Virus record (IMG/VR): IMGVR_UViG_3300020205_003662
Location: 1-20,087 of that record
DNA: 20,087 bases
Reading direction: 5' to 3' (one strand)
DNA from: a virus
Part shown: one piece after another, positions 1 to 17,947 of the stretch
Position numbering within the stretch: position 1 is the stretch's first letter
Layout: the number at the start of each line of letters is the position of its first letter
Notes under the pieces: model-generated
What the model was told of the DNA's origin: nothing
What the model saw: only the letters and a program-made list of their open reading frames with translations
Databases searched by the model: none
Made by a program: the position numbers and the translations under genes

Positions 1-3000
1 TATAAGTAAATCCACTTAATTGCATTACTTTGCTTAATGCATTTTCGAGAGGTTGAATATTTTCTTTGAGTCTTTCATCAGATGCAAAGGCAATAATATC
101 TCCAGTAGCAGAGATTTCTCCAGTAATAGAAATACCAGTATTTGTAGTAGAAAGTTTCGCAGAATTATTAAAATAGAGACTAACTGCACCATCTGCGTTA
201 GCATCAATCATACTTTCGCCGGTATATTTTTGAATATAAACTCCAGCATTACCACGAACATATAAGGATCCAGTTCCCTTATCATCAATATAACTATTTG
301 AACCATCGTGATACAGATCTAAATCATCACTAGTTCCAAGATACAGATGATCATTATCACGGAATCTTAAATTACCATTAAGTGAAATACTATTATTGAA
401 TGTGGCCGCGCCAGTTACAGTTAAACTACCTGAAATTCCAGCATTTCCACCAACATTCAGGTTCTTTTCAATACCCACACCACCTTCAACTATAAAAGAA
501 CCCGTGTCCTTTGTAGTTGATTCTGTGGTATCTAATATTCTAGAAGCACCGGTTACATTTAATGTTCCACCAACATTTAAATTACTACCAATACCAACAC
601 CACCATCAACAACTAATGCTCCTGTATTGGTACTAGTTGATTGAGTTGTATCCGTAACATCTACAAGATTATTAACCTTTAAGATTCCATTTACAGTAAC
701 ATTATCATTCAGTTTAAGTTCCTTATTGAAGGTGACAGGACCATCAAATTGTGAAAGAACAGTTCCAGAATTTCCTCCTTCTACAAGAAGTCTTTCTTTA
801 ACAATAACTTCATCAAATACAACACTCAATCTCGAAGGATCTTCTCCGGTTACTGTAGGTACTGGAATATCAAATGTAGTTTGTTCTCCACTTGATGCAG
901 AATACTTTGTATTTCCGATGAAGAAATCTCCATCGTTATTCATACCAGTATATACAACACTACCACAAGAACTTTCTTGTGATTGAACAAGAAAATCTTC
1001 TCTTTCGGTGAGAGTTCTTACTTGAACTTGAGGTAATCCTGTGGAATAGTTACCAGGTCCATAACCAAGATATTCGAAAGTATGTCCAGAAGCACGAACA
1101 ATTGATGGTCTGCGGAATTCAATTGAAAGTGGTTTAATCTTTCGAATGAGAGATCCTGTTGCGTGATTTTCTTTAAGTGTTCCAAAAGCACCACGAATAA
1201 CAGAGATTTCATTATTACCAGAACCAGACAGAGTACTGCTGGTAATTCTCATAATCTCATTATCAATTTGAATATAAGAACCTAGAGGGAATCTCTTTGT
1301 AATCGCAGCGGCAGAGTTAATTGATTGAACAGGAATACTTACTTCGTTGGTAATTCCAGAAACTAATGTAAGAACTTCATTATCATAAAGTGATATACTA
1401 CGAGATCCTAGATTTTCTCCTGATTTATCTGCTGTTGCATCATTAGAAGATAATGAATGCTTAAGAATATACCCATTCGTTACTGAAAGTGATTTTCCTG
1501 TAATTGCGGTAAATTGAGTAACCGAAATTCTTTCATCAACAATAAAATCACCAACATTATTATTTGAAGAATCGAGAACTCTAAATTTATTACCCGATAA
1601 TATTCCGTGAGCACTTGCACAAGTAAAGGTACTTATTCCTGAACTTGTATCATATACTGTGGAAGAAATAAGTGCAGAAGGTCCAACATTTACAATATAC
1701 TGCCCAACTGCTGGAAGTGGATCTTTTCCAGTATAGGCAACAGAAACTTGATTTTTTGCTGGAATTGAATTGATTCTAAAGTATCCATCAGCAGTTGTTC
1801 CAATACCAGTTGCCTGAATTGCATTTCCGATTGCTGTGGAAATACCAGTTGTTGAGATTGTGATCGAAGAACTTGGCGTACCACCAATATAAGTGCTATC
1901 GAAGTAAAGAGTTTCTCCAGTATTGTATCCAGATCCACCAGCGATAATATCCGCAGATGTTACTGAACCACCAGCAGAAACGATTACTTTTGCAGTCGCA
2001 CCATCCCAAGTGGTAAGTGTATTTTCATTATAAAGTTTAACATTATAATAAGTACCATTTAGGTGACCACTTCCACCATTCAGAGAACTATAAGTTACAA
2101 TACCAGCAAGACCGTGCTCTTGACCAAAGGTCATAGTGATGAGACTACTTGTGGTAGAAACACCGGAAATTTCTGGAGTTAGATTTACATAATTGAAAAG
2201 TTTATCAACTGTTTCGCGAGTAATGCTCTTCTTCAGATCATTAGTTACAACATCTCCAATTGGATTTCTCTTTGCAAATGTTATTGATGATGAAGGATTA
2301 TCATTTATATTATCCTTATCCAATTGAGGATAAAGATTAACTACATTTTGGTTAAAGTTAAGATCAGTAAATTCATTAACAATAGAATTCGATGCGTTTA
2401 GTACATATGCATAATAAACACCATCCTGAATATTTTCAATATATGGAGTAATAACTTCGGAACGATAGATGAAGAAATTACCCTTCAGATCATTTCTCTC
2501 GAATCTAGGAAGAGAGACTGTTCTTAAGTTTGTATTGTTAGTAAAAGTTCCTGGTATATGAAGAATATCTTTTGTATCCGTAGCAGAATATGTAAAGATT
2601 TTATCATTTACAACGGAATCAACTTCAAATGTACCATTATATCCTTTATCAATTGCACCAGAAGTATTGCTTGTGCTGGTAACATTTTTGATGATAATTT
2701 GATCACCAACTTTTAGATTGTGTGGTAGATCTGCAGTAACTGTAATAATACTTGAAACACCATTAAATGAGCAGGTGCTGATAAATCTAGGATTACGATT
2801 ATAAAGATAATCATTCGCAGTAATACTTCCTAAATTAAAATCAGCATTACTTCTTGCTCCAGTTGTGCTTGACTCCTGAATAATGAAACCTTCGGCAGGA
2901 TCTCTCGCATTAATTATTTCTTTAGGAATAACAATACGAACCTTATAGAGTTTCTCATCTAAACTTCGAGAATCATCAAATCTTTTTACGAAAGCAACAT

Positions 3001-5332
3001 TTGTTCTTTCAGTTAATCCGGCAACACCCAGAGAAACAATTGTAGTGTAAATTTGACTTGTTGCATTCGTGTGAATATACCATCCAGAATTAGTATAGTC
3101 CCACTGAATAGGAGATCCAATTTCTCCTGCTGCCTTATCAGATACTCTACTTTCAACTTTTAATTTTGTTCCGCCATAAATTGTAATCGGAATTGGAGTT
3201 GCTGCCTGAGCATTTGTGAGTGAAGAAGCAACTTTAATTTCAGTGCTTGAATGACGAATTGTATAATAAACAGTATTTTCTACAATATTTTCAGGAACAT
3301 CACCATCTTCACTAATAATACGAATCTTTTCTCCAGTTCGAAGATTGTGTGATCCGAGCAATAGAATATTATTTACTTGAGTTGTTGCATTATAGATTTT
3401 TTCAGAACTTTCATTTCCCAAAGCAATAATATTTCCAGATCCTGAAGAAACATCATTATCAAGCATTAAAACACTTGCTTCTTTTGTTCCTACAGAAGTT
3501 TCTACAAAGAGAGTTTCTCCTCTTCTTGCACCTATACGATAACCTTGAGTGATAATTGGTGGGGAAACATCAGCATTATTAAATCCAAATAAGTAAAGAT
3601 GACTTGAAACACCAACATTAATAGTTTTAGAGACATCCAGTGCCGTCCAATCAACATTATCTTCAGTAGTAACAATTGCTCTTGGAGTTACAATTGAAGT
3701 AATGAACGCTTTATTATCCTTATCAAATGCTTCCTTCTTAAATCCATCAGCAGACAGTGAGAATTGTCCAAAGTTAGAGTTAGAGTTTGTAATAGATCCA
3801 TCACCACCAGATCTTACATCAAAGTGCTTATTGAAACCAATTGCAAAAACTGAAACGATTTGAATAAATGAATCGTTTGTTACTTTAATATGACTCGACT
3901 GCCATCCAGTGCGATAGATTGCATTTGAATCTAGGTGATAAACTGTCGCAGCATTTGTGGATGATGATCCTGAAGTTAAAGATGCTCCAGTTTGAGTTGT
4001 AATATTAATTCCTTCATAAACTCTGTTTGTAGGATTATATTTTACAAACGCTCTATCGTCTTTTTGTAGAGAAACTGCGGTGAATTGTGCAACAACCATC
4101 GAACGGAAACCTGCTGCCTTTGCCCCGTCAGCAAGCATTCCATTCATACCCCACACAGAACGCAGAGATATGTTAAAGATGTATGGAGAGGCACCAGAGA
4201 CCGTATCAGTCTCAATTGTGACTGTAGCAGAAGATCCACTCAATCCTGCGGCAGATCCTGCAGGCAGATTTGATCTTACAAAAGGTAAAAGGTATGTAAA
4301 TGTGGTCTCGCTAGGAACATTCTGAACTTTTGTTGAGACATTATAATCATCAACATTTACTCCACGAATCTTAATTGGAGTGTTTGAAGTTAAATTATGA
4401 GCAATAGCAGTAGTGACTGTTACTACTGCTCCTGGAGTTGAACCATCTCCAGAAATAATTGAAGTAATATTAACTGGATCCGAAGCAAATGCACCAACAA
4501 TTTCCCACTCTGGACGTTGCTTTGCAAATCCACCTGCTTCTAATGGATATTTTTGATCAATATTTCTACCAGTTGCTTCATTAAAAGCATTTGATAGTTT
4601 GCTATAATACATATCAAGGTCAGTGATGTCATATCCTTCAGGAATTGTGACGCCATCTGCATACTCAAAACAAGTTAGTTTGTGATGAGAAAATGTTGGA
4701 GTTGATTGGTTATTCGCAGAAAAATCACTAGGATCAGTATAAACCAATCCACTTTCATTCGCATCAAAAATAGAGAACTGCCAAAAGTAACAGGCACCAG
4801 TAATTCTAAAAATCGCTGATGAATTTACATTTGGATCAGTAGGATTAGGAACATATTTTGCACGGATCTTTGTTTTTCTTAAGTCTAAACCAACAATTGA
4901 AGTACCACGAGGAACTACAACACCACCATAGATACTGTTAAACTTATAAAGAATATTGTTATTCTGAATAAGATCAAAATTTGTTGTAAGAGAAAGACTT
5001 AATGTGTCTTGAGCAGCAGTTTCTGTTCCTGCTGGTGAAACTGTTCTTGCAATTCCAGCAACTTCTTTAATTGCAAATCCTGGACGGTTATCAACTACGT
5101 GTTCTCCTGGAAAGAGTAGAATTGTAGTTTTTTCTGTAATATCGTTATTACTTCCACGCAAATAGGAGAATCTTGCAGACTCTATTAATGCTCTCTGTAT
5201 AGTCTTGAAAGGTTTTGTAAGACTATTTCCTTGATTATCGATACTATCCGTAGCATCAAGATCATTAGGATTTACATAAAGTATACGACCTTCAGTATTC
5301 TTAATGAAATTTTCCAGTTTATTGAGTGGCAA
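1..5332 (-). CDS. Giant fibre-like virion structural protein with C-terminal S74 chaperone (3' end outside window)
   Basis: At least 1777 residues, open at the left edge. I checked the frame for stops at about 2.04-3.18 kb and 4.02-4.39 kb and at both ends and found none. The start is TTG at 5332, following an in-frame TAA and an AAAGG ribosome site about 9 nt upstream; the N-terminus reads LPLNKLENFIKNTEGRILYV. It resembles the very large structural protein of T4-like cyanophages that I recall being annotated 'VrlC-like'. The last part carries 40-residue repeats containing GGVGI..NLNVGG, then a YHDGSNSYI motif, and finally ASDERLKENIQPLENAL (Ser about residue 1751). SDxRLKEN is the hallmark of the Peptidase_S74 intramolecular chaperone, which trimerises fibres and can cleave itself off at this Ser. 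An external trimeric fibre or baseplate appendage is inferred. It is the last leftward gene in the window, with a late-promoter-like octamer just upstream. Confidence 0.85.
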   Translation of the reverse strand, partial: MPLNKLENFIKNTEGRILYVNPNDLDATDSIDNQGNSLTKPFKTIQRALIESARFSYLRGSNNDITEKTTILLFPGEHVVDNRPGFAIKEVAGIARTVSPAGTETAAQDTLSLSLTTNFDLIQNNNILYKFNSIYGGVVVPRGTSIVGLDLRKTKIRAKYVPNPTDPNVNSSAIFRITGACYFWQFSIFDANESGLVYTDPSDFSANNQSTPTFSHHKLTCFEYADGVTIPEGYDITDLDMYYSKLSNAFNEATGRNIDQKYPLEAGGFAKQRPEWEIVGAFASDPVNITSIISGDGSTPGAVVTVTTAIAHNLTSNTPIKIRGVNVDDYNVSTKVQNVPSETTFTYLLPFVRSNLPAGSAAGLSGSSATVTIETDTVSGASPYIFNISLRSVWGMNGMLADGAKAAGFRSMVVAQFTAVSLQKDDRAFVKYNPTNRVYEGINITTQTGASLTSGSSSTNAATVYHLDSNAIYRTGWQSSHIKVTNDSFIQIVSVFAIGFNKHFDVRSGGDGSITNSNSNFGQFSLSADGFKKEAFDKDNKAFITSIVTPRAIVTTEDNVDWTALDVSKTINVGVSSHLYLFGFNNADVSPPIITQGYRIGARRGETLFVETSVGTKEASVLMLDNDVSSGSGNIIALGNESSEKIYNATTQVNNILLLGSHNLRTGEKIRIISEDGDVPENIVENTVYYTIRHSSTEIKVASSLTNAQAATPIPITIYGGTKLKVESRVSDKAAGEIGSPIQWDYTNSGWYIHTNATSQIYTTIVSLGVAGLTERTNVAFVKRFDDSRSLDEKLYKVRIVIPKEIINARDPAEGFIIQESSTTGARSNADFNLGSITANDYLYNRNPRFISTCSFNGVSSIITVTADLPHNLKVGDQIIIKNVTSTSNTSGAIDKGYNGTFEVDSVVNDKIFTYSATDTKDILHIPGTFTNNTNLRTVSLPRFERNDLKGNFFIYRSEVITPYIENIQDGVYYAYVLNASNSIVNEFTDLNFNQNVVNLYPQLDKDNINDNPSSSITFAKRNPIGDVVTNDLKKSITRETVDKLFNYVNLTPEISGVSTTSSLITMTFGQEHGLAGIVTYSSLNGGSGHLNGTYYNVKLYNENTLTTWDGATAKVIVSAGGSVTSADIIAGGSGYNTGETLYFDSTYIGGTPSSSITISTTGISTAIGNAIQATGIGTTADGYFRINSIPAKNQVSVAYTGKDPLPAVGQYIVNVGPSALISSTVYDTSSGISTFTCASAHGILSGNKFRVLDSSNNNVGDFIVDERISVTQFTAITGKSLSVTNGYILKHSLSSNDATADKSGENLGSRSISLYDNEVLTLVSGITNEVSIPVQSINSAAAITKRFPLGSYIQIDNEIMRITSSTLSGSGNNEISVIRGAFGTLKENHATGSLIRKIKPLSIEFRRPSIVRASGHTFEYLGYGPGNYSTGLPQVQVRTLTEREDFLVQSQESSCGSVVYTGMNNDGDFFIGNTKYSASSGEQTTFDIPVPTVTGEDPSRLSVVFDEVIVKERLLVEGGNSGTVLSQFDGPVTFNKELKLNDNVTVNGILKVNNLVDVTDTTQSTSTNTGALVVDGGVGIGSNLNVGGTLNVTGASRILDTTESTTKDTGSFIVEGGVGIEKNLNVGGNAGISGSLTVTGAATFNNSISLNGNLRFRDNDHLYLGTSDDLDLYHDGSNSYIDDKGTGSLYVRGNAGVYIQKYTGESMIDANADGAVSLYFNNSAKLSTTNTGISITGEISATGDIIAFASDERLKENIQPLENALSKVMQLSGFTY
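386..625 (-). repeat. Two 40-residue repeats in the fibre-like protein
   Basis: Two consecutive 120-nt units (506-625, then 386-505 in reading order) encode diverged copies. The first contains TGALVVDGGVGIGSNLNVGG and the second TGSFIVEGGVGIEKNLNVGG. Repeats of this kind are common in marine phage fibre shafts and suggest a repeating beta-structured stalk just before the chaperone. The copies differ at several DNA positions, so the duplication is old. Confidence 0.8.
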
Positions 5333-5692: not shown

Positions 5693-5700
5693 TATTTATT
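5693..5700 (-). promoter_or_regulatory. T4-type late promoter-like octamer AATAAATA
   Basis: The minus strand reads AATAAATATAATATATCG across the stop codon of the HNH gene; AATAAATA occupies this site, 22-29 nt upstream of the ATG of the 100-aa gene. Its position matches the octamers before the HNH gene and before the 150-aa gene, which supports a real late promoter. Confidence 0.45.
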
Positions 5701-6136
5701 TTTTGTTTTTACCCCTATAAGTATCAGTCTGTGCATGACAGTTCGGGCACAGGATACGAAGGTTTTCTAAACGATTGTCGTGGTGATTGCCGTTTATGTG
5801 GTCAAGTTCAATCGGTGCTGGTTGTCCATTCCATTCGGTTATACCACAACATTCACACTTATGTTGTTTGAGACCTTCTGCGATTAATCTTTTTTTCAAT
5901 CCGTGTGATGAATATGATATTTTTCTTTCATTTGTTAAAAGTTCTTCAATTGGTGTAGGATTATATCCGGAAATTTTAAAATGATTAAAATCCAAATTTA
6001 ACTCTATTGCTCTTTTTTTAAGTAAGGAATTTGTAGATTTGGACTTATTTAAGTAAGAAGCAACCTCTGTAAAACTTTTGCATTTTGGTATAGCATCAAT
6101 TAATTGTTCGTCTTTCCAAGTGGGTTTTTGTCCCAT
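5696..6136 (-). CDS. HNH endonuclease (homing-type), 146 aa
   Basis: Probable free-standing HNH nuclease. Residues 1-50 (TWKDEQLIDAIPKCKSFTEV, then a helical stretch) look like a helix-turn-helix DNA-binding segment. Residues 94-134 form the HNH module: C94xxC97 and C130xxC133 are two zinc-binding pairs framing LDHINGNHHDNRLENL (D112-H113, N121, N125) and the final H134. All expected catalytic and metal ligands are present and the frame is intact, so the enzyme is probably active. HNH genes of this size in T-even and cyanophage genomes are usually homing endonucleases that cut a related, intron- or gene-free allele. It sits directly downstream of two tRNA genes, a common insertion border. It has its own late-type octamer 24-31 nt upstream, so it is likely expressed apart from the tRNAs. 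The target site cannot be read from this window. Confidence 0.85.
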   Translation of the reverse strand: MGQKPTWKDEQLIDAIPKCKSFTEVASYLNKSKSTNSLLKKRAIELNLDFNHFKISGYNPTPIEELLTNERKISYSSHGLKKRLIAEGLKQHKCECCGITEWNGQPAPIELDHINGNHHDNRLENLRILCPNCHAQTDTYRGKNKK

Positions 6137-7492: not shown

Positions 7493-7500
7493 TATTTATC
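7493..7500 (-). promoter_or_regulatory. T4-type late promoter-like octamer GATAAATA
   Basis: The minus strand reads GGATAAATATTTTG over the stop codon of the glycine-rich gene. GATAAATA has one mismatch from TATAAATA and lies 24-31 nt upstream of the ATG of the 150-aa gene, the same distance as the exact octamer before the HNH gene. Confidence 0.45.
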
Positions 7501-8548
7501 CTACTCTACCAGCACGAGTTCCTGTGGTAATCCAGGTAACATTACCATTATTGACGACATAAAATCCAGAAAGTCCTCCACCAGTACCACCAGCACCAGC
7601 AGAACCTGCTGTATAGTTTCCACTTGCACCAGTTCCTCCAGTATTTCCAGTTCCTCCAGATGTTCCATATGCACCACCAGTTCCTCCAGTTCCTCCAGTA
7701 CCACCTACACCAGCATTTGTTCCACCAGCTGCACCACCAGCACCACCAAGACCAGATGCTGCAGCACCATCATAACCTTGCCCTCTTCCACCATTACCCC
7801 CAGCACCACCAGCACCACCAGAACTATATCCAGTACCGGACTGTACGCACATACCACAGGAAACAAGCAGGCATCCAGGTAAAAAACTAGTTCCGCAAAA
7901 TCCTGGTTTGCAAGTTATATTCACGTTGAAACCGAAGCGATTGTAACAAGGTTGATTACAATTAGCTGGATTAACACATCCAGTATATCCCTCACCTATA
8001 TCAGTAACAGTAGTAAAAGATCCTTGCCCACCAGTACCACCAACACCACCAATACCACCACCTCCTCCTCCAGAATAAATGGTTCCTTGATTATCAATAG
8101 AAATTGCTGCTCCAGCAAAAATTGCATTACCTCCAGTTCCACTATTAGCAGCACCACCAGCACCCAAAATAGTTCCATTATTCACTAATCTAAATGTTCC
8201 ACTAAATCCAGAAGGAATATTTAAAGCATAATTTGATGTATTTGTTGCACCAACAGTAACTCCAGAATTAATTATTAATCGTTTTGGTGCTGACGATGCC
8301 CATTCTCCAGCAGTAAAATAACTTGATGCATTTACATTTGTAGATGTTGTGGTAATATACTTTATAATTTCGTTGATCGCACCATAAAAATCAGCAAGAC
8401 TTATAGTTCCACTTGTGGGAACATTAGTATTATTTGAAGGAACCAATCCACCATTTCTATAATATTCATTAATTCCAATTGGATTTACACCACCAAATTC
8501 AGTTTGAATACTTCCCAAATCAATAGGTCCAGAAGATGGTAACGCCAT
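7496..8548 (-). CDS. Glycine-rich adhesin-like tail protein with Cys-rich insert, 350 aa
   Basis: Probable receptor-binding or fibre-tip protein. Residues 1-58 (MALPSSGPIDLGSIQTEFGG, then GTISLADFYGA) are a module I recognise at the N-terminus of many marine phage fibre-like proteins, probably for attachment to the particle. Residues 60-128 are Thr/Ser/Asn-rich beta sequence (NSGVTVGATNTSNYALNIPS). Residues 129-177 and 238-326 are extremely glycine-rich (GGGGGGIGGVGG, VGGTGGTGGTGG). T-even gp38 adhesins likewise present glycine-rich loops to the receptor, although the sequences are not evidently homologous. Between the two Gly blocks is a Cys-rich insert, residues 191-234, with eight Cys (191, 197, 201, 213, 218, 226, 231, 234). 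It is last in the baseplate operon and overlaps the S74 fibre gene by 1 nt. A role in host range is inferred. Confidence 0.8.
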   Translation of the reverse strand: MALPSSGPIDLGSIQTEFGGVNPIGINEYYRNGGLVPSNNTNVPTSGTISLADFYGAINEIIKYITTTSTNVNASSYFTAGEWASSAPKRLIINSGVTVGATNTSNYALNIPSGFSGTFRLVNNGTILGAGGAANSGTGGNAIFAGAAISIDNQGTIYSGGGGGGIGGVGGTGGQGSFTTVTDIGEGYTGCVNPANCNQPCYNRFGFNVNITCKPGFCGTSFLPGCLLVSCGMCVQSGTGYSSGGAGGAGGNGGRGQGYDGAAASGLGGAGGAAGGTNAGVGGTGGTGGTGGAYGTSGGTGNTGGTGASGNYTAGSAGAGGTGGGLSGFYVVNNGNVTWITTGTRAGRVG

Positions 8549-9771
8549 TACTTACTTTCCAAATATCCTATTCTTTTTTCTAATTTTTCTATAGTTTTTT
8601 GTTGTTCTTTAATTCCTTCAATCAAAAGTGGAATTAATTTTTCATATTGAACTGTTTTATAATTTTCTCCACTAATTGAATATTCACTTCCATTTTCATC
8701 TTGCCCAATATCAAAAGGAGCAGGAACAACAATTTGAGGAAGAACTGCCTCTACTTCTTGTGCAATAACTCCAACTTGTTCTTTTTTATCGTAATAACCA
8801 TATCCTTCAGCAAGTTTATTACTATTAAATGTAACTCCATTTAATTTTAAAATTTTAGAAAGAGCACTTGAAATAACTTTAATATTTTCTTTAAGTCTTC
8901 TATCCGAATAATATGCAGTAATATTATTTGTTGCACGAATTTCTCCAGCGGTTCCTGATGGTGCCGTACCTACACCAAAAGAACTTACTTGAATATTAGT
9001 CGCAGTTAAAGTATTCGTGCTTGGATTATAAGTTAAATCAGAATCAACTTTAACAAGATTATTACCAGAAGTAGATTCAACAAATGTTACATATCTTGAA
9101 GCATTTGTAGAATCTAAATTTATCCCAATAGAAGTTGCTGATCCAACATTTGCAGAACTAGCATTAATCCATAATGTTGAAGATCCATTTGAAGACAGAA
9201 TTTGACCAGAGGATCCAAGTGAATTTGACCCATCATACAAACCATTAGTAATCTTTAGTGATGAAGCAGTTAAAATTCCAGTTTGAATATTTCCAAATGT
9301 ATTTGTATTTGGATTATAAGTTAAATCAGAATCAACACGAATAATATTGTTTCCCGATGTGGTTTCAACAAAAGTCAAATATCTAGATACATTTGTAGAA
9401 TCTAAATTAGTTCCTACAGAAGTAGCGGATCCTACAGATGCAGAACTAGCATTAATCCATAATGTTGCAGATCCATTTGAAGACAGAATTTGACCAGAAG
9501 CACCTAGAGAAGAAGAGGAATCATATAGTGGTCCAGATATTTTTAAATTTGAGAAAGTGGAAATTCCTGTTGAGTAAGCATTTCCGTTTATATTTCCAGT
9601 TATATTACCATTTACATCACCATTAAGATTACCAGTTACATTACCACTTACATTACCTACTATATTTCCGGTTAAATTACCTATTATACTTCCATTAATT
9701 GTAATATCTCTATTAAATGTTGAACTTTCATTAAATATTACTGATTGTCCAAATATGTTGGGGTTCGTCAT
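8548..9771 (-). CDS. Fibre protein with GN-repeat shaft and C-terminal S74 chaperone, 407 aa
   Basis: Tail or baseplate fibre-like protein. After a short N-terminus (MTNPNIFGQSVIFNESSTFN), residues 27-64 are nine or so tetrapeptide steps of the form GN-hydrophobic-T/S/N (GNLTGNIVGNVSGNVTGN), expected to form a beta-helical trimer shaft. Residues 76-255 hold two copies of a 96-residue module. Residues about 288-407 are the Peptidase_S74 chaperone: YYSDRRLKENI carries the conserved Ser289-Asp290 cleavage site, VGVIAQEVEAVLPQIV is the second signature, and the end is a coiled coil (EGIKEQQKTIEKLEKRIGYLE). The family directs trimer folding and is often released by self-cleavage after the shaft has formed. 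It has a 1-nt gap to the spike-like gene and a 1-nt overlap with the adhesin-like gene, so expression is coupled. Confidence 0.88.
   Translation of the reverse strand: MTNPNIFGQSVIFNESSTFNRDITINGSIIGNLTGNIVGNVSGNVTGNLNGDVNGNITGNINGNAYSTGISTFSNLKISGPLYDSSSSLGASGQILSSNGSATLWINASSASVGSATSVGTNLDSTNVSRYLTFVETTSGNNIIRVDSDLTYNPNTNTFGNIQTGILTASSLKITNGLYDGSNSLGSSGQILSSNGSSTLWINASSANVGSATSIGINLDSTNASRYVTFVESTSGNNLVKVDSDLTYNPSTNTLTATNIQVSSFGVGTAPSGTAGEIRATNNITAYYSDRRLKENIKVISSALSKILKLNGVTFNSNKLAEGYGYYDKKEQVGVIAQEVEAVLPQIVVPAPFDIGQDENGSEYSISGENYKTVQYEKLIPLLIEGIKEQQKTIEKLEKRIGYLESK
9007..9546 (-). repeat. Duplicated 96-residue fibre module (period 288 bp)
   Basis: Copy 1 (9295-9546) and copy 2 (9007-9258) encode nearly identical segments: SLGASGQILSSNGSATLWIN versus SLGSSGQILSSNGSSTLWIN, then SRYLTFVETTSGNN versus SRYVTFVESTSGNN, then VDSDLTYNPNTNT versus VDSDLTYNPSTNT. 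The high identity points to a fairly recent internal duplication that lengthened the fibre, and it may recombine. Confidence 0.9.
9580..9693 (-). repeat. GN-x-T/S/N tetrapeptide repeat (12-bp period)
   Basis: About nine 12-nt steps encode GS-II, GN-LT, GN-IV, GN-VS, GN-VT, GN-LN, GD-VN, GN-IT and GN-IN. The DNA varies in third positions but keeps the frame, as expected for a selected structural repeat. Confidence 0.85.
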
Positions 9772-10325: not shown

Positions 10326-12350
10326 TTATGTAATACAATCGATAACTTGTTTGACTTCTCCTTGAAATTCTGGTCTTACAGCAAGAAGTGGTTTGAGAAT
10401 AGCACCAGAACCAGTATTAGAAATTGCAGTAAGAACTGGAAGATCTTTGATACTTGTAGTATTTATCGGTTCAACTTTAATGATACTACCGTCAAAAACT
10501 TGAATATTATAAGTATTTCCCAGATTATCAACTACTTTATCATTTGGTGAATAGTTTTGACCAGGACTTAAAATTTCAATATTTGATACAACATAATCTT
10601 CAATTTCTCCTACAGGATAATTTTCTCCTTCAGAGACAATATAAATTGCAGTAACTACGCCATCTTGAATAACCGATCTTGCAATTGCACCATATCCCTT
10701 ATTACAATTATCAGTAATTTCAATAAATGGAGGAAAATTGTATCCAGATCCACCACTTGTAATAATTGCTCCAATAATACTTGCCGTTCTATTCACACCT
10801 TCTCCAACAACTGATCCAAGAATTGGAATTGCAGAAGCACCAGACCCTTCACTTCCAAAAATACTGATGCTTGGAGCACCACAATTAGTTGGAGGTCCTA
10901 CATAACAACCGCCAAGTGGAGATGAAAATCCAGGAATTGCTGCCGCAGCATTAAAGATATCAAATCCACCAACAATTCCAGCGATACCTTCTAATGGATT
11001 TCCAGATGATAATGCTGCCGAAGCAATTGAAGATGCTACATTCGCAACATCCATAATTTTTTTTAAATTTGGACCTGGAGAATTTGTAGGACCTTTTCCA
11101 ATTGTCCAGACATTTACTGGTGCTTGATTGTTTGTTGCCTTTGAATTACAATTTACTAATTCTGAAAGACCACCAATAATATCTGGACTATTTCGAATCG
11201 TATCACTTACACTAAATCCAGAGAAGAATTTGAGTATATTTGATATTCCCGAAATTGCAGTTGAAAGACCACTCTCAACTGCACCAATAATATTATTTAC
11301 TAAAGAACCAGTAACCTGATCCGATACACAAGATACAAAATTTGCAACATTATCAACCATCGAAGTTAGAATATTTTTAATAATATCTCCAAGTCCGTTT
11401 ATAATACTATTTGTTACGCAAGGTATTGCATCTTGTAATTTCTTAACTGGATCTATCATTGCAGTTTGTGCTGCAACTCCTGCTAAATGTGCAGTAACAG
11501 GATTACCAGTTGCTGCTAGAACGGTATTATAAACTGATTCGTATAAAAGTTTAAGTCCCTTGTTCAGAATTGGAGTTAATGCTTTAAATAAACCTCCAAC
11601 CATTCCTCCAACTAAACCGCTTGTTATCTTTTTGATTTTTTCAGTAACAAGATCAATTTTTTCGGCAATAAGATTTTTAATAAAATCAATTCCATCCGCA
11701 ATAAAAGTTTTTGCATCTTGAATAAACTTAAGAAGATTATTGATTTCTGTTGATATTTTTTGAATTGTAGATCCAGGTCCTGTAATTGCGTTTATTTGAT
11801 CACCAATACCCCTAAAGTATGAAATCTCGTTCGAACCAATTTGCGGTGCCTGTGCTGGAGCAACATATCTTGGAGATTTTTGAGCATCTACATTCTGTTC
11901 AGACGACTCACCTTTTGGTAATGTTCCATTTGGAGGTTTAATTTTATCAGTATATCCAGTAAAAGGACTAAATGGTCCAGTATAATCTTTAGAAGGAACT
12001 TGACTGGTTCTTCCAAATGTTGCTAAAATAACTGGTATTTGCCCATTATCTCCATCTAAAAAGAAACCAAATACAATATCAGAAGGAGAAAGTTTTACAT
12101 CTGTTGCTTGGTTTGCTGCACCTGACCCTGAAGTTGTGGGAATCAGAACTTGTGCCCAAGGAAGATCTTCATCAGCAAGTTCTACTGTATTGTAAGGATG
12201 ATACCCCATAATACGAACTTTATATCTATTTCCCCAACCACCACCATTTATTTGAGCACCATGAGCACTTTCTGGTGGAATTTGCCCAATCCACCATCTA
12301 AACCCATCTCGTCCTAAAAAGTTACTTTTGAGTAATGATTCGTCTATCAT
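10326..12350 (-). CDS. 5: Baseplate central spike/hub OB-fold protein, gp5-like, 674 aa
   Basis: The N-terminus MIDESLLKSNFLGRDGFRWW, then YKVRIMGYHPYNTVELADEDLPWAQV and GFFLDGDNGQIPVILATFG (residues about 1-115), is the gp5-type OB-fold that sits on the gp27 trimer in T4. What follows differs from T4: I see no lysozyme domain. Residues about 190-480 instead form a long run of amphipathic and hydrophobic helices rich in Gly/Ala/Ile (SGLVGGMVGGLFKALTPILN). Residues about 515-640 are beta-rich with ITSGGSGYNFPPFIEI and similar turns, and at least seven Cys are scattered through the middle. The ATGA overlap with the gp27-like gene puts it directly downstream of its expected structural partner, as hub genes should be. 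I am confident of the OB-fold and less sure that the C-terminal part is hub rather than tape-measure-like. Confidence 0.82.
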   Translation of the reverse strand: MIDESLLKSNFLGRDGFRWWIGQIPPESAHGAQINGGGWGNRYKVRIMGYHPYNTVELADEDLPWAQVLIPTTSGSGAANQATDVKLSPSDIVFGFFLDGDNGQIPVILATFGRTSQVPSKDYTGPFSPFTGYTDKIKPPNGTLPKGESSEQNVDAQKSPRYVAPAQAPQIGSNEISYFRGIGDQINAITGPGSTIQKISTEINNLLKFIQDAKTFIADGIDFIKNLIAEKIDLVTEKIKKITSGLVGGMVGGLFKALTPILNKGLKLLYESVYNTVLAATGNPVTAHLAGVAAQTAMIDPVKKLQDAIPCVTNSIINGLGDIIKNILTSMVDNVANFVSCVSDQVTGSLVNNIIGAVESGLSTAISGISNILKFFSGFSVSDTIRNSPDIIGGLSELVNCNSKATNNQAPVNVWTIGKGPTNSPGPNLKKIMDVANVASSIASAALSSGNPLEGIAGIVGGFDIFNAAAAIPGFSSPLGGCYVGPPTNCGAPSISIFGSEGSGASAIPILGSVVGEGVNRTASIIGAIITSGGSGYNFPPFIEITDNCNKGYGAIARSVIQDGVVTAIYIVSEGENYPVGEIEDYVVSNIEILSPGQNYSPNDKVVDNLGNTYNIQVFDGSIIKVEPINTTSIKDLPVLTAISNTGSGAILKPLLAVRPEFQGEVKQVIDCIT

Positions 12351-13705
12351 TTAGTATTAGTTCCGTAACGACCGAATGTGTCTCTAATGAGTTTCATCGA
12401 AGTATATGATCCTCCAGTATCAAAATGATGACAAAGTTCCTTAATCATATATAGACCACTTTGCTCACTATCAAATTCTTTTCCTTTACTTCCACTAATC
12501 TTTGGAAACTGACATTCAATAATATCACCTGCTCTTAAGTTAGTATTTGATGGAACAGTCATACTTAAGGTTTGAGTGAACATAATATTATATCTCATAA
12601 TTGCTTGAGATTGATAAAATGCAGGATTTGCATTTGAATCATAAGATACATCCTTATCTAAAGTTCCGATATCAAGAATTTGAGTTAAAATTCTTGAGGG
12701 AATATCTCCAAGATCTTGATTTGCACCATTTGCAATTTTCGGAAGAACTAAATCCTGCCCCAAATTTTTTGTTTTGGAAACATAATCACTCAATTTAAAA
12801 ATACCTTGCTGCTCTGGAGTGAAGTTCCAATCTAATGGATTAAAAAACATTCTAAAACTAGAGTATGTTCCTAATCTTAATTTTTCAAGAAGATTTTGAT
12901 TTCTGCTTGTAGAATATTGTAGAATATTAAAATCATTATCTCTTTCAGCTCCAGATTGATTAACATCAGTAAAAGTATAAGAAAACTTTTGATCATTAAA
13001 AGATTTTCTTGGTTCTTGAGTAATCAGTCCGTCAATAGATCTAAAATTAAATCCATCTTGAGTTTGATAAAAGAAATATCCAGCAGTAGCATCTGTTGAA
13101 CTTTTAGGAACTCCTTTTGATGCTAACCACACAAGAATTGTGAACGGTTTTCTTCGATTACCAATAAAACCATAACTATTTTGAGTTTGATCTATTTGAT
13201 TTATTTTATCAGTTTTTAAGTATTCAGTAATGATGTCTCTTACTGAAGTATCAATTGTTGAACTGGTTGGATATTTTTTTGGAACTCTTACAGTTTCATT
13301 CGTAATTGTTTCTCTTGAAACTAGATTAAGAGTAAAACTTTCTCTTAAAGTATCACTAATAACATTTGTAATACTTGAAACATAAAGATAGTCCTTTGGA
13401 TCTGTTGCAAAATCTAATCCAGGATTTGTTGAAGAGTTTCCTGCAATTTTTATCGAAACTCTTTCTCCACCACGAAGAGGAAGACCATTATAAACAGACT
13501 GAAAGTTTCCATCTGGATTACCTTCGTTGTCTGGAGACTGAACAGTATCTCCAGTATTTGCAATAACTATTTTTGCAGTAATTGTAGGAGAGAATATGTC
13601 TTCATAATAATCAATTGATGCTGCACCAAGTTTCAGATCAACCGTTCTTTTTTGATCATTTGATTCTATTGTAAGTTGTTCGTATATTGATTTTTTAGTA
13701 GACAT
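12347..13705 (-). CDS. 27: Baseplate hub protein, gp27-like, 452 aa
   Basis: It begins MSTKKSIYEQLTIESNDQKR. Residues 20-110 form an early beta-rich tube-like domain (DYYEDIFSPTITAKIVIANT, GGERVSIKIAGNSS). A second beta domain (FTLNLVSRETITNETVRVPK) and an alpha-beta section (KPFTILVWLASKGVP...GYFFYQTQDGFNFRSIDG) follow, with a third beta region near the end (SMTVPSNTNLRAGDIIECQF). This order, including the 'FxNRxxxI' turn and the late 'LRAGDIIECQFP', matches how I know gp27/gpD-type tail hubs, which form the trimeric ring between tube and spike. Length is close to T4 gp27 (about 390). It overlaps the gp5-like gene by 4 nt and the hydrolase gene by 1 nt. Assignment is by fold pattern and synteny, not by strong sequence identity. 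Confidence 0.7.
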   Translation of the reverse strand: MSTKKSIYEQLTIESNDQKRTVDLKLGAASIDYYEDIFSPTITAKIVIANTGDTVQSPDNEGNPDGNFQSVYNGLPLRGGERVSIKIAGNSSTNPGLDFATDPKDYLYVSSITNVISDTLRESFTLNLVSRETITNETVRVPKKYPTSSTIDTSVRDIITEYLKTDKINQIDQTQNSYGFIGNRRKPFTILVWLASKGVPKSSTDATAGYFFYQTQDGFNFRSIDGLITQEPRKSFNDQKFSYTFTDVNQSGAERDNDFNILQYSTSRNQNLLEKLRLGTYSSFRMFFNPLDWNFTPEQQGIFKLSDYVSKTKNLGQDLVLPKIANGANQDLGDIPSRILTQILDIGTLDKDVSYDSNANPAFYQSQAIMRYNIMFTQTLSMTVPSNTNLRAGDIIECQFPKISGSKGKEFDSEQSGLYMIKELCHHFDTGGSYTSMKLIRDTFGRYGTNTK

Positions 13706-15579
13706 TAGGTATATGCTAAATCAAGTAAAAGTTTTTTAGTGATATAACTATTTAATGAGTTTGTTTGTATCGGTATAAATCCCATCGAACCTCCTCCAGA
13801 AGGTGGTGCTGAAGGTATCTGAGGAGGTTGCATATTATCAATAATTACAACTTTTTGTCCAACTCTTTGTGGTGTGACTTGACTTGAAAGTTGTTGGCGT
13901 CTTTGTGATGGTTGTGCGGCGATTTGTGCTGGTGTTGGTGCAGCAATTTGTGCGGGTTGTCCAGCAACTCCAGTAAGTTGTCTTCCAATTGAAAGTAAAT
14001 TTAAATATGGGCGAGGATTAATTGGTGTTGCATAAGGACCTCCAGGACGAACTTCGTAATGTAAGTGAATATCAGGAGAACTTCCAGTATTTCCAATTTC
14101 ACCAATTGTTTGACCATTATATGATTCTCCATTTCTTACCATCATTTTGGCTAAGTGGGCAAATCTGTAGCAAGTTCCATCTGATGTAATAATATCTACA
14201 GTATTACCATACCCACCAGCAACTGCTGCAAAAACAACTTTTCCACTTTTTTTAAAAGAAACATAATAACCTCTTGCACCAGAAGTTCCAATATCAATTC
14301 CTTCGTGTTTTCTACCTGTTCGTGGTGCTCCAAACTCACCTTTACCCCCACTCAATCCTACTGTTTGTGTTCCCCCAGATGGACCAGAAACATTAATTTC
14401 ATCCCGAACAGTTGTGCTTATACCTTTTCCTGGTATTGGTGTTATTTGTGCTGGTGCTGCTGGAGTTGCAGCACCAAGAGGAGTATCTTTCGCTTTATAC
14501 ATTATATCTATTTCTTTTTTTGAATATTTGGAATAAGGAGTCCAGGCACCGGGACCTTGAGTCTTTAACAATCCAATAGCCAATAAGTCTTGATTATTTT
14601 TATCAAATCTATCCGTATCTTTCAATCCAGCAGATGCTTTTGCGGTTGGAAGAGATCTTGGTACAAATTGATATCTACCTGCTGCGTGTAATTTTCCTTG
14701 ACTCTGTAATGATATAACTTCACCGATAGTCATATCTGTAAGATTTTTTCCAATCCATTTTTTGGACCCACCAAGACTATCAGCAGCTGTACCTCTGTTC
14801 ATCGCATTATAATCACCACCACTTTCTGGTTTAGAAATAATATCTAATGCTTGTTTATGAATTGGTTGTAATTTCCCTGCAGTACCAGGAGTACCAGAAG
14901 TATCAGTTACTTCAGGTTGTGTAGTATAATCAGTTCCAGTTGGAGCAGCATTTTCTCCACTTACTAATCCTTCACCAAGTGGTGTTGTAAATAATTTTAT
15001 TCCATCATCAATTTGAATACTCATATCATCAAAGACACTATTCAAATCATCCATCGCAGTTTGAACTCTTTTATTTGAATCCAAGAAATCAAAATTTATT
15101 ATATTTTGACCAACTGCACCTAAAACTTTACCAAAAGATTGTAGAGATTTTCCAATATTAGTAACAAATCCTCCCAAAATATTCACCAATCTTCCTATCC
15201 TAGCCATTAACTCTTGAGCCATACTGATTATTGTAGGCAAATTATTCAATAACCAACCAACCAAAAGAGTTCCCAAGAAGTCCATAATTCTTCCCAAAAA
15301 TCCTCTTGTGCTATTCGCAAGAGCCAATCCACGATTTTTAATGAATCCACCTATACTAGAGGACTCAATTATATCTTCTTGTCTTCTTCTTCTTACTCTC
15401 TCTCTTCTACGATCAAATGATAAACGATCACCAAAAACTAACTTTCTTTTAATTTTGTTTCTATTGACGAGAATACCTGCACTTCGGTTTGCACTTACTT
15501 GAGCACGAGTTACAGCAACACCAAGACTTCTTACTCCTGTTGTTATTTGCTGCAGATTAAGAGGAGATGCAATCGCCAT
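13705..15579 (-). CDS. Virion peptidoglycan hydrolase: lysozyme-like plus M23 peptidase, 624 aa
   Basis: Likely tail-associated cell-wall enzyme. Residues 1-75 are basic, with an Arg cluster (SFDRRRERVRRRRQED). Residues 97-145 are hydrophobic helices beginning RIMDFLGTLLVGWLLN, shared with the neighbouring 492-aa protein. Residues 240-365 read as a lysozyme/transglycosylase-like domain: SKPESGGDYNAMN with candidate catalytic Glu252, then AAGRYQFVPRSLPTA. Residues 412-525 are an M23 (LytM-type) endopeptidase with every expected ligand: H425xxxD429 (KHEGIDI), H475 (FAHLAK) and H505xH507 (HLHYEV). The tail (530-600) is Ala/Gln/Pro-rich. Glycan and peptide cleavage in one polypeptide would open the wall during DNA injection, the task gp5 lysozyme has in T4. 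Adjacent to the gp27- and gp5-like genes, it is probably a hub or tube-lumen component. Confidence 0.85.
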   Translation of the reverse strand: MAIASPLNLQQITTGVRSLGVAVTRAQVSANRSAGILVNRNKIKRKLVFGDRLSFDRRRERVRRRRQEDIIESSSIGGFIKNRGLALANSTRGFLGRIMDFLGTLLVGWLLNNLPTIISMAQELMARIGRLVNILGGFVTNIGKSLQSFGKVLGAVGQNIINFDFLDSNKRVQTAMDDLNSVFDDMSIQIDDGIKLFTTPLGEGLVSGENAAPTGTDYTTQPEVTDTSGTPGTAGKLQPIHKQALDIISKPESGGDYNAMNRGTAADSLGGSKKWIGKNLTDMTIGEVISLQSQGKLHAAGRYQFVPRSLPTAKASAGLKDTDRFDKNNQDLLAIGLLKTQGPGAWTPYSKYSKKEIDIMYKAKDTPLGAATPAAPAQITPIPGKGISTTVRDEINVSGPSGGTQTVGLSGGKGEFGAPRTGRKHEGIDIGTSGARGYYVSFKKSGKVVFAAVAGGYGNTVDIITSDGTCYRFAHLAKMMVRNGESYNGQTIGEIGNTGSSPDIHLHYEVRPGGPYATPINPRPYLNLLSIGRQLTGVAGQPAQIAAPTPAQIAAQPSQRRQQLSSQVTPQRVGQKVVIIDNMQPPQIPSAPPSGGGSMGFIPIQTNSLNSYITKKLLLDLAYT

Positions 15580-15580
15580 T

Positions 15581-17059
15581 TTATGTTACCACATTATAAT
15601 GAACTTGAGAATATAATGTATAAAAGTTTTCTGAGTTTGATGATGAGATTGCAGGAACATCATTTGCAGGACCACCAGTTGTGGGAATAGGAGCATTCTG
15701 CTGTTGTGAGGATGTTCTAGTCATTATAATATTTGGTGCTGGTTCAGGAAGAGGTGCGGCAAGTTGTTGAGATCTCTGCGTTTGAACCATTGATGTAGAA
15801 GAAATCTGTGCTTGTGGTGTGGCGATCTGATCTACTGGAATATTTACTTCACCATAAGCAGGTGGTTGTGAGAAGTCTTGACCTTCATCTTTAAAAGCAC
15901 TATCTAATTTTCCAGAAGTATCGACACTAAACTGAAAATCACTCACAGAAGGAGTCATAGATACTCCTGGTTTTGCTGCTACTCCTGGTTTTGCTGCTAC
16001 TCCTGGTTTTGCTGCTACTCCTGGTTTTGCTGCTGCTGGTCTATTTTTTTGCGTTCTTCCAAAAGGAGTGTTATCAAATGCACCAAAATCACGAGCAACA
16101 TCTAATGCAACAGCGCCCCAACCAAGAATAGGAACTGCAGAAGCTACTGAAAGTGCTGCACCAGGAATATCTCCTTGACTAGCTCTATATCCAGCAATTC
16201 CTAAATTCACAAAAGTTGAAATTCCAGGTATTAACCTCCCAAGAAGTCCAGTGCCCTTTCCCGCTGCACCTTTTGCTGCAGCTGTGAGAGGAGCAGCGGC
16301 AGCACTAGCAGATGCAGCAGCTGCTTTTGCTCCTCCACTTAAAAGATTTTTACCTGCATTAAATATACCTTTTGCAAGATTTCCAAGTCCCTTAAAAATA
16401 CCACCAATAACACCACTAACTAAAAACTTACCTAATTTTGCAACAATATTAGTAATGGTTCTTGCAACACTCAAAAATCCATTACGAATTAACGCAAATA
16501 TCTTAAGTGCAGTCCCAAGAGTGTTGATAACATTATCTTTTATTTCTTCAAGTTTATTCTTCGATCCTTCTGCATTTGCCTGGATTGCTTCTATTCCTTG
16601 ATTCAGCAACCAACCCAAAAGTAATGATGTAAAAAACTTCATCAATCTGGATAAAACGCCTTCAGTTTTTTGTGCGATTGCCTGAACAGGTGCTGCGATT
16701 GTGCTTTGTATTCTTCTTTCAATTACACCTTCTTGTTCATCTCTTACAGACTCTTCAGATAATCTTCTTTCTTGTAATTGTTTTTGGTTTTCTCTTTGTT
16801 GCTCTAAACCACTATCCGTAGCAATATAATACGCAATTCTTTCTAATGCAGAACCAATATCTTGCATTTGTTTGGTAAATCCAATCAATTGATTAGAAAC
16901 CAAAGATAAAGTGACCTGATTAGATGGAGTTAATTGTTGTTGAGTTGTTGCGGGAGTAACTAAAGGAGTTCTCCCTACACCAAAAACACTACCAGAAAAG
17001 GTATTTCTTGCAATATTAGTAGTTCTAGCAACAGGAGAAGATCCTATAAGATTAACCAT
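15581..17059 (-). CDS. Hub/tape-measure-like structural protein with tandem AAKPGV repeats, 492 aa
   Basis: Exact role unknown. Residues 50-115 are helical and charged, with a likely coiled coil (LEQQRENQKQLQERRLSEES). Residues 138-153 (RLMKFFTSLLLGWLLN) match the 97-112 module of the hydrolase downstream. Residues 180-320 alternate amphipathic and hydrophobic helices (GVIGGIFKGLGNLAKGIFNA, IPILGWGAVALD) with an Ala-rich stretch at 244-268, a composition typical of tape-measure and injected proteins. Residues 341-366 contain four AAKPGV repeats, and the C-terminal 120 residues are Gln/Pro/Ser-rich and probably disordered. It starts 8 nt inside the gp51-like gene and ends 1 nt before the hydrolase gene. 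T4 places its tape measure/hub gp29 in this neighbourhood, so gp29-like is the leading guess. Confidence 0.75.
   Translation of the reverse strand: MVNLIGSSPVARTTNIARNTFSGSVFGVGRTPLVTPATTQQQLTPSNQVTLSLVSNQLIGFTKQMQDIGSALERIAYYIATDSGLEQQRENQKQLQERRLSEESVRDEQEGVIERRIQSTIAAPVQAIAQKTEGVLSRLMKFFTSLLLGWLLNQGIEAIQANAEGSKNKLEEIKDNVINTLGTALKIFALIRNGFLSVARTITNIVAKLGKFLVSGVIGGIFKGLGNLAKGIFNAGKNLLSGGAKAAAASASAAAAPLTAAAKGAAGKGTGLLGRLIPGISTFVNLGIAGYRASQGDIPGAALSVASAVPILGWGAVALDVARDFGAFDNTPFGRTQKNRPAAAKPGVAAKPGVAAKPGVAAKPGVSMTPSVSDFQFSVDTSGKLDSAFKDEGQDFSQPPAYGEVNIPVDQIATPQAQISSTSMVQTQRSQQLAAPLPEPAPNIIMTRTSSQQQNAPIPTTGGPANDVPAISSSNSENFYTLYSQVHYNVVT
15963..16034. repeat. Four perfect 18-bp tandem repeats (AAKPGV)
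   Basis: ACTCCTGGTTTTGCTGCT is repeated four times without any change at 15963, 15981, 15999 and 16017. On the coding (minus) strand each unit adds AAKPGV. Identical third codon positions mean very recent expansion or slippage, so copy number may vary between relatives. Confidence 0.97.
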
Positions 17060-17210
17060 TTATTTTTTGTTTTAAATTTTCTTCTTCAATATATTGCTGA
17101 AGTAACGACAGGTAGATTTCCCTTTCCCACGGAATCATATTTTCGAGTTCTGTCAAACTATATTTATGATGTTGAATTAACGAAAAATTCACCTTATAAT
17201 AAGTTTCCAA
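17052..17210 (-). CDS. 51: Baseplate hub assembly protein, gp51-like, 52 aa, TTG start
   Basis: A short frame between gp26 and the 492-aa gene encodes LETYYKVNFSLIQHHKYSLT and continues ELENMIPWEREIYLSLLQQY to a charged end. The YYK..F.LIQHHKYS..E.E.MIPWER pattern is one I recognise from the small protein annotated gp51 beside gp26 in T4-like cyanophages; T4 gp51 acts in hub assembly. No ATG exists in the frame upstream. I take TTG 17210 because the conserved YYK must be included; GTG 17192 is an alternative that would remove it. The stop overlaps the next gene's start (ATGGTTAA), implying coupling, and 17 nt separate it from gp26. Whether it is catalytic, chaperone or structural cannot be read from the sequence. 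Confidence 0.72.
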   Translation of the reverse strand: METYYKVNFSLIQHHKYSLTELENMIPWEREIYLSLLQQYIEEENLKQKING

Positions 17211-17227
17211 ATTCTCGTGAGATAGGG

Positions 17228-17947
17228 CTACGCGAAAAAAGATGATAATCCTTCAAGAACAACATCACTTTCAATACCAGTATTTGGATTTTTAACTTTA
17301 ATAATATGAGAGAGTTTGGGCATAGTATCGAAGAACTTTTCAATCTCCTTAAATTGATTTGATGTAAGTTGATCCAAAAATTCAACTAATTCTTTTTTGG
17401 AGCAATCTGATGCGGACCAACTTTCTTCTTCACTATAAACTTGCTCAATACAAGAAACAATCAAATCAAAAGTATCTTCGACTGTCATCATATTACCGGT
17501 AGAAAAATTATTCTTAATAAATTCAGTCAAAGAAGGATACTTCATTCTTAAGATTAAAGTATCATCTAATTTAATATCTCTGGAATGTTTTTCATTTGTC
17601 TGAACTTCAATCTCATCCAAATTTATTGCAGCAGGAACTTGTGTTTTATTATCATCAGGGCAAGTAATCAAAACTTCGACAGACTCACCAACCGATTTTC
17701 CGCGAATGTTAAGAAACAAATATTCAATATCAAATGTTGCTAGATCATCAATCTTAATTCCTTTGGAAAGAATACAATTAGCAATTACATTCTTAACAGC
17801 ATTCGCAATTTGTTTGTTGTCCTCACTTTCCATCGCAATAATAAGAATTTTTTCTTCTTTTACTAGAAAAGGTCTATATCTAATTTTCTTTTTTAATGAA
17901 GGAATTTCCAACTCATAAGTTGGCGTAGAAATTTTTGGTAAAGCCAT
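17228..17947 (-). CDS. 26: Baseplate hub subunit/assembly protein gp26 (T4_baseplate family), 239 aa
   Basis: It begins MALPKISTPTYELEIPSLKK. The sequence then reads KIRYRPFLVKEEKILIIAME, with VKNVIANCILSKGIKIDDLA and FDIEYLFLNIRGKSVGE over residues 20-90. The combination P.....L.IPS..K.I.YRPFLVKEEKILL, then a D-I-E-YLFL-IR motif, is the signature of the T4 baseplate hub protein family (gp26 and relatives in cyanophages, about 210-250 residues), so length and order agree. The middle contains CPDD (NKTQ), a weak remnant of the Cys-containing loop seen in relatives, and the C-terminal half is helical (ELVEFLDQLTSNQFKEIEKF). It acts in building the hub before wedge attachment, in the cytoplasm. 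It starts 28 nt after the tube-fold gene and ends 17 nt before the gp51-like gene. Confidence 0.85.
   Translation of the reverse strand: MALPKISTPTYELEIPSLKKKIRYRPFLVKEEKILIIAMESEDNKQIANAVKNVIANCILSKGIKIDDLATFDIEYLFLNIRGKSVGESVEVLITCPDDNKTQVPAAINLDEIEVQTNEKHSRDIKLDDTLILRMKYPSLTEFIKNNFSTGNMMTVEDTFDLIVSCIEQVYSEEESWSASDCSKKELVEFLDQLTSNQFKEIEKFFDTMPKLSHIIKVKNPNTGIESDVVLEGLSSFFA

What the first reader, a model, noticed from the sequence alone, without database searches (positions are those of the whole stretch)
13705..15579. Two wall-degrading activities in one baseplate-operon protein
In T4 the puncture enzyme is a lysozyme inside gp5. Here the gp5-like protein shows no lysozyme domain, while a neighbour carries a lysozyme-like segment (ESGG, candidate Glu252; GRYQF) and a complete M23 site (H425, D429, H475, H505, H507). 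The wall-opening function seems to have moved to a bifunctional glycosidase/endopeptidase suited to cyanobacterial peptidoglycan.
Basis: partly seen in the sequence, partly recalled or inferred. Interest (0 to 1): 0.6.

Follow-up and report, generated by a model that had tools for sequence, protein, structure and literature searches.

The report
Cyanophage tail lysin with swappable cassette
A virus related to phages of photosynthetic bacteria encodes a tail protein that joins two different cell-wall cutters; the pairing is a known kind of design, but one of the two cutters is replaced wholesale by unrelated enzymes between almost identical viruses, which hints at an arms race at the moment of entry.

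Summary
ORF B (window 13705-15579, minus strand, 624 aa) carries two wall-cleaving domains. Residues 239-367 are homologous to phage-lambda lysozyme (profile against PDB 1am7/3d3d, E about 1e-12; model pLDDT 90); Glu252 is one of five invariant residues in 33 relatives. Residues 416-529 are a complete M23 peptidase (Pfam 3e-16; structural Z 16.4 to LytM/lysostaphin). The gp5-like neighbour has no detectable lysozyme, nor do 21 other gp5s of this group. B's positional orthologs are in purified virions of S-CREM2 and S-SCSM1 (published mass spectrometry).

"Moved out of gp5" is only partly supported: phage phiM12 keeps the same lysozyme type inside gp5, but direction is unknown. Fit to cyanobacterial murein is untested. 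Dual virion lysins are known (phi29 gp13, HydH5, A-1(L) hub).

New: B is a conserved scaffold with two slots, glycan-cleaver then peptide-cleaver, and the first slot is exchanged extremely often. The window's nearest relative (95.9% DNA identity over 5.2 kb) diverges at window ~14915 into a different lysozyme class. Among scaffolds at least 97% identical, 11 of 24 pairs differ in slot-1 superfamily, 0 of 26 in slot 2. Slot-1 class follows the scaffold tree no better than shuffled labels.

The parts
13705..15579 (-). ORF B, 624 aa, two-slot tail lysin
14965..15579 (-). Conserved N-terminal scaffold, residues 1-205 (predicted helices 9-72, 94-161, 171-198); paralogous to the N-terminal part of ORF A
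14914..14916 (-). Point where the DNA stops matching the nearest relative L012 (95.9% identical before it); start of the exchanged cassette, about residue 222
14479..14865 (-). Slot 1: lambda-lysozyme-type domain, residues 239-367
14824..14826 (-). Codon of E252, candidate catalytic glutamate
13993..14334 (-). Slot 2: M23 endopeptidase domain, residues 416-529 (H425, D429, H507 zinc ligands; H475, H505 catalytic)
13708..13755 (-). Conserved C-terminal helix LNSYITKKLLLDLAYT, residues 609-624
15581..17059 (-). ORF A, 492 aa, paralog of B in its N-terminal region, no recognised enzyme domain
12347..13705 (-). gp27-like hub protein (phrog_350); overlaps the end of B by 1 base
10326..12350 (-). 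gp5-like protein, OB domain only, no lysozyme found
17228..17947 (-). gp26 baseplate hub (T4_baseplate, 4e-75)
17052..17231 (-). probable small gp51-like ORF; start codon uncertain
   Evidence: by position and size (gp51 slot)

Best explanation
B is a virion-associated lysin of the tail hub of a T4-like phage of the cyanophage (Kyanoviridae) type. Shown: a scaffold (conserved helical N-terminus and C-terminal helix) carries a lambda-type lysozyme and an M23 peptidase with intact active-site residues, in the hub operon, while gp5 lacks a lysozyme. Inferred: the scaffold docks B in the gp27/gp5 hub or in the tube just above it; on contraction or ejection B reaches the periplasm, the lysozyme (by homology to lambda R, a lytic transglycosylase) cuts glycan strands and the M23 domain cuts peptide cross-links, so that a local hole opens for the tube and DNA. 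Shown by comparison: the lysozyme slot is a cassette swapped frequently by recombination among at least five enzyme classes, while the peptidase slot is mostly M23. Why it is swapped is inferred only: pressure from lysozyme inhibitors (such as the T4 Spackle type) or from varying host glycans.
For: Domain homology and intact catalytic residues. Operon gp26-gp51-A-B-gp27-gp5 conserved. No lysozyme in 22 gp5s. Positional ortholog in virions: S-CREM2 gp209, 71 unique peptides (PMC10665884; it also bears the lambda-type domain); S-SCSM1 ORF213/214 (PMC9602691). Slot order glycan-cleaver then peptide-cleaver in 44 of 44 non-redundant B proteins with one of each. Cassette replacement: window vs L012, L123 vs L124, L007/L057/L064; 11 of 24 vs 0 of 26 pairs; 18 slot-1 changes vs 18.4 in shuffles.
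Against: No activity has been measured. The virion data are from distant orthologs, not this virus. The authors of the S-CREM2 and S-SCSM1 papers did not place these proteins in the tail ('encapsulated within the capsid'; [quoted passage not shown] 19 of 79 B proteins, mostly of the P-SSM2 type, show no recognised enzyme, so B's constant role may be structural and those phages must open the wall in another way. The five classes rest on my own HMMs, seeded from Pfam matches except for the lambda-type ones.
Confidence: 0.78

Rival explanations
1. A and B are the tape-measure proteins of these phages, and the enzymes are passengers on a tape measure, as in many Gram-positive phages.
For: In HTVC008M and phiM12 the large gene after gp51 is tape-measure-like; B has long N-terminal helices and a conserved C-terminal helix; A and B are very long (1565 and 1456 aa) in S-CREM2 with its 418 nm tail and 943/735 aa in S-H34 with 129 nm.
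Against: Profile comparison of the B N-terminus with the HTVC008M and phiM12 proteins finds no homology. The helix-prone part of A and B is short. The tail-length data are too few, and the enzyme domains add length.
Confidence: 0.3
2. B is the lysis endolysin, made late and merely co-purified with virions.
For: PHROGs and GenBank call relatives 'endolysin'.
Against: It lies in the hub operon between hub genes in nearly all relatives, has a large helical scaffold shared with a mostly non-enzymatic paralog, and the S-CREM2 and S-SCSM1 proteins were found in purified virions.
Confidence: 0.08
3. The function moved once from gp5 into B.
For: T4 and phiM12 gp5 carry a lysozyme, cyanophage gp5s do not.
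Against: T4 gp5's T4L-like lysozyme differs from the lambda type; slot 1 has been replaced many times, so its present enzyme need not descend from gp5.
Confidence: 0.15
4. One or both domains are catalytically dead and act only as wall binders.
For: Degenerate M23/LytM domains exist (EnvC is among the fold matches).
Against: All catalytic residues are intact in both domains and kept across relatives.
Confidence: 0.07

Closest known systems
Cyanophage A-1(L) hub gp15 (PDB 8kea, PMC10966104)
   Same: Baseplate hub of a cyanomyophage with lysozyme, endoglucanase and peptidase domains, dual hydrolytic activity shown; its lysozyme region is homologous to slot 1 (E 3e-8).
   Different: There the enzymes are fused to the hub barrel itself; here they are on a separate protein with its own helical scaffold, and slot 2 is M23.
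phi29 gp13 (PDB 3csq; PMC9662197)
   Same: Tail-tip protein with a lysozyme and an M23 peptidase; M23 fold match Z 10.1.
   Different: Podophage knob protein; H(x)7D instead of H(x)3D; no such scaffold known to me.
Phage T4 gp5 tail lysozyme (PMC3004832, PMC7650644)
   Same: Same presumed job: local wall digestion at entry by a hub component.
   Different: T4L-like lysozyme inside gp5; no peptidase.
Sinorhizobium phage phiM12 gp5
   Same: T4-like phage with the same lambda-type lysozyme in the hub region.
   Different: The domain is fused to gp5; a separate following gene is annotated as M15 peptidase.
HydH5 of phage phiIPLA88 (PMC3150257)
   Same: Virion-associated hydrolase with CHAP and lysozyme-type domains.
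   Different: Peptidase/amidase first, Gram-positive host, siphophage.
Synechococcus phage ACG-2014f B protein (YP_009778738)
   Same: Same operon slot and scaffold; lysozyme then M23.
   Different: The lysozyme is of the Pfam Phage_lysozyme (GH24) type instead of lambda-type.

Membership tests
M23 (M23B) peptidase | Hx3D and HxH motifs with the extra catalytic His | tested here: met
   H425/D429, H505/H507, H475
M23 (M23B) peptidase | LytM-type fold | tested here: met
   AF2 model, Z 16.4, rmsd 2.1 over 122 residues to 2b13 and 123 to 4qpb
M23 (M23B) peptidase | Zinc-dependent endopeptidase activity on murein | not testable with these tools
   needs purified protein
Lambda-type lysozyme | Significant profile homology to lambda lysozyme | tested here: met
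   1am7/3d3d about 1e-12 over nearly the whole domain
Lambda-type lysozyme | Catalytic Glu and GRYQ / QD motifs | tested here: met
   E252, A299, G301, Q304, Q330 invariant in 33 sequences
Lambda-type lysozyme | Same three-dimensional fold | tested here: inconclusive
Lambda-type lysozyme | Lytic transglycosylase product (1,6-anhydro-muropeptides) | not testable with these tools
   needs biochemistry
Virion-associated lysin | Protein is part of the virion | tested here: inconclusive
   true for positional orthologs in S-CREM2 and S-SCSM1, not tested for this virus
T4 gp5 tail lysozyme | Lysozyme domain within the OB-fold spike protein | tested here: not met
   window gp5-like has no lysozyme match
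Tape measure protein | Homology to known T4-like tape measures | tested here: inconclusive
   no profile match to the HTVC008M and phiM12 proteins, same gene slot; such proteins diverge fast

The most novel reading that the evidence does not exclude
The tail lysin is an arms-race locus. The glycan-cutting cassette is exchanged by recombination among unrelated lysozyme classes fast enough to lose all phylogenetic signal, while the M23 partner stays. The exchange is driven by inhibitors of entry lysozymes (Spackle-like proteins of competing phages or host lysozyme inhibitors) and made tolerable by the second enzyme.
Probability: 0.25. Interest if true: 0.75.

Novelty: new variant of a known kind. 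Interest (0 to 1): 0.5.

Why it matters
How T4-like cyanophages open the wall is obscured by annotation: their gp5 is labelled 'tail lysozyme' without having a detectable lysozyme, and the proteins that bear the enzymes are labelled endolysin, hypothetical or capsid cargo. Placing the function in B corrects that. The swappable first slot next to a stable second slot gives a natural experiment on what selects entry enzymes: closely related viruses that differ mainly in this cassette can be compared directly.

Tried and rejected
Tape measure identity of A/B by homology: hhalign of the B N-terminal profile against the HTVC008M and phiM12 proteins gave nothing; tblastn with the HTVC008M protein found itself and mainly Gram-positive phage tape measures, no cyanophage. 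S-CREM2 gp124 (2668 aa) as a tape measure: not helix-prone. A conserved-pattern scan with the broad N-terminal alignment failed for lack of conserved stretches and was replaced by a closer set. Tail lengths for a wider correlation could not be gathered (paper not held). Literature searches turned up no description of the cassette exchange in cyanophages; the library is partial.

Full report
The reading frame is on the minus strand, 13705-15579, 624 aa. The window is a 20,087-base IMG/VR virus fragment with T4-like tail genes: gp26, two large proteins A and B, a gp27-like and a gp5-like protein, then fibre genes. Its gp27-like protein is 62.5% identical to that of Synechococcus phage S-SRM01, so a cyanobacterial host is likely but not shown.

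Slot 2 (416-529) is an M23 peptidase: Pfam 3.4e-16, solved-structure sequence match 3e-14, AlphaFold model with Z 16.4 to LytM and lysostaphin, catalytic residues kept in 42 of 43 relatives. Slot 1 (239-367) has no Pfam hit but matches PHROG families that include endolysins. A profile of 33 relatives finds lambda lysozyme at about 1e-12 and the hub of cyanophage A-1(L) at 3e-8. Folded alone it gives pLDDT 89.6. E252 is invariant; the profile alignment puts this region on the conserved Glu region of lambda lysozyme.

The gp5-like protein keeps only the OB domain. Of 22 gp5 proteins of this group plus phiM12's, none matches a Pfam lysozyme; my lambda-type profile finds the domain only in phiM12 gp5. 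'Tail lysozyme' in the cyanophage annotations is therefore probably a transferred name. T4 gp5 carries a T4L-like lysozyme (PMC3004832), so the location does differ between T4-like phages, but nothing here polarises the change.

B's place is fixed: gp26-gp51-A-B-gp27-gp5 in nearly all isolates and contigs examined; S-CRM01 has one protein for A and B. A and B share an N-terminal module. In S-CREM2 both were found in the virion proteome with 73 and 71 unique peptides, called endolysins and thought to be capsid cargo (PMC10665884). In S-SCSM1 both were found and judged not likely structural (PMC9602691). Their gene position and shared scaffold make a tail location the better reading; this is inference.

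In 79 non-redundant B proteins, 44 have one glycan-cleaving and one peptide-cleaving domain and all 44 have them in that order; one has two glycosidases, 15 have a single recognised domain and 19 have none. One split gene (L104) has the reverse order in its second ORF. Slot 1 may hold lambda-type, PF18013 phage tail lysozyme, SleB-type, GH24 or GH73 domains; slot 2 M23, M15/VanY or CHAP-type. The A proteins of S-CREM2 and S-SCSM1 carry GH19 and GH73 domains.

Slot 1 is exchanged between close relatives. The window and its nearest relative L012 are 95.9% identical in DNA over 5.2 kb; the match stops at window ~14915 (residue 222), and L012 continues into a PF18013-type domain (HMM 3.7e-26). L123 and L124 are 94% identical upstream and 91% downstream of about 0.5 kb that does not align and holds two different lambda-type lysozymes. 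L007, L057 and L064 share 95-100% of each 40-residue block of their first 200 residues and carry three different classes. Among pairs with scaffold identity of at least 97%, 11 of 24 differ in slot-1 superfamily and 0 of 26 in slot-2 class; at 90-97% it is 17 of 37 and 0 of 44. Pairs are not independent. On the scaffold tree slot 1 needs at least 18 changes against a mean of 18.4 in label shuffles, so slot-1 class carries no detectable signal of the scaffold tree; deep branches of that tree are weak. For slot 2 the shuffle test has no power because nearly all are M23.

Bifunctional virion lysins and modular lytic proteins are known. The variant here is a dedicated two-slot protein in the hub operon of T4-like cyanophages with a hypervariable first slot. 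T4 Spackle inhibits the gp5 lysozyme and is thought thereby to exclude superinfecting phages (PMC7650644); class-specific inhibitors of that sort would explain the turnover, but no evidence for them was sought or found here.

No activity, virion or host data exist for this virus itself.

Noticed in passing
L104:5338-7331: B is split: a 182-aa scaffold-only ORF followed by an ORF with M23 first and lambda-type lysozyme second, the reverse of the usual order.
   Followed up: no
L033:6484-15555 (S-CREM2): A and B are 1565 and 1456 aa with low-complexity repeats in the phage with a 418 nm tail; by eye A also has CHAP-like and amidase-like stretches besides GH19, and B has lambda-type plus GH24 lysozymes.
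   Followed up: partly
L035:8974-10524 and L126-L139: P-SSM2-type B proteins (about 500 aa) keep the scaffold but show no recognised enzyme; how these phages open the wall is open.
   Followed up: partly
L046:7927-11105 (phiM12): Lambda-type lysozyme fused to gp5, followed by a gene annotated as M15 peptidase: a similar pair of activities in another arrangement.
   Followed up: partly
window 8548-9771 and 2-5332: Two fibre-like proteins each carry (or reach, at the window edge) a Peptidase_S74 chaperone domain.
   Followed up: no
window 7496-8548: 350-aa protein with a long glycine-rich repeat and a cysteine-rich stretch.
   Followed up: no
window 5696-6136: 146-aa HNH-endonuclease-like ORF (by eye, CECCG...ELDHINGN) between fibre genes.
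   Followed up: no
L047:8727-11693 (S-SKS1): The region of B and gp27 is broken into several ORFs, possibly sequencing frameshifts or real decay.
   Followed up: no
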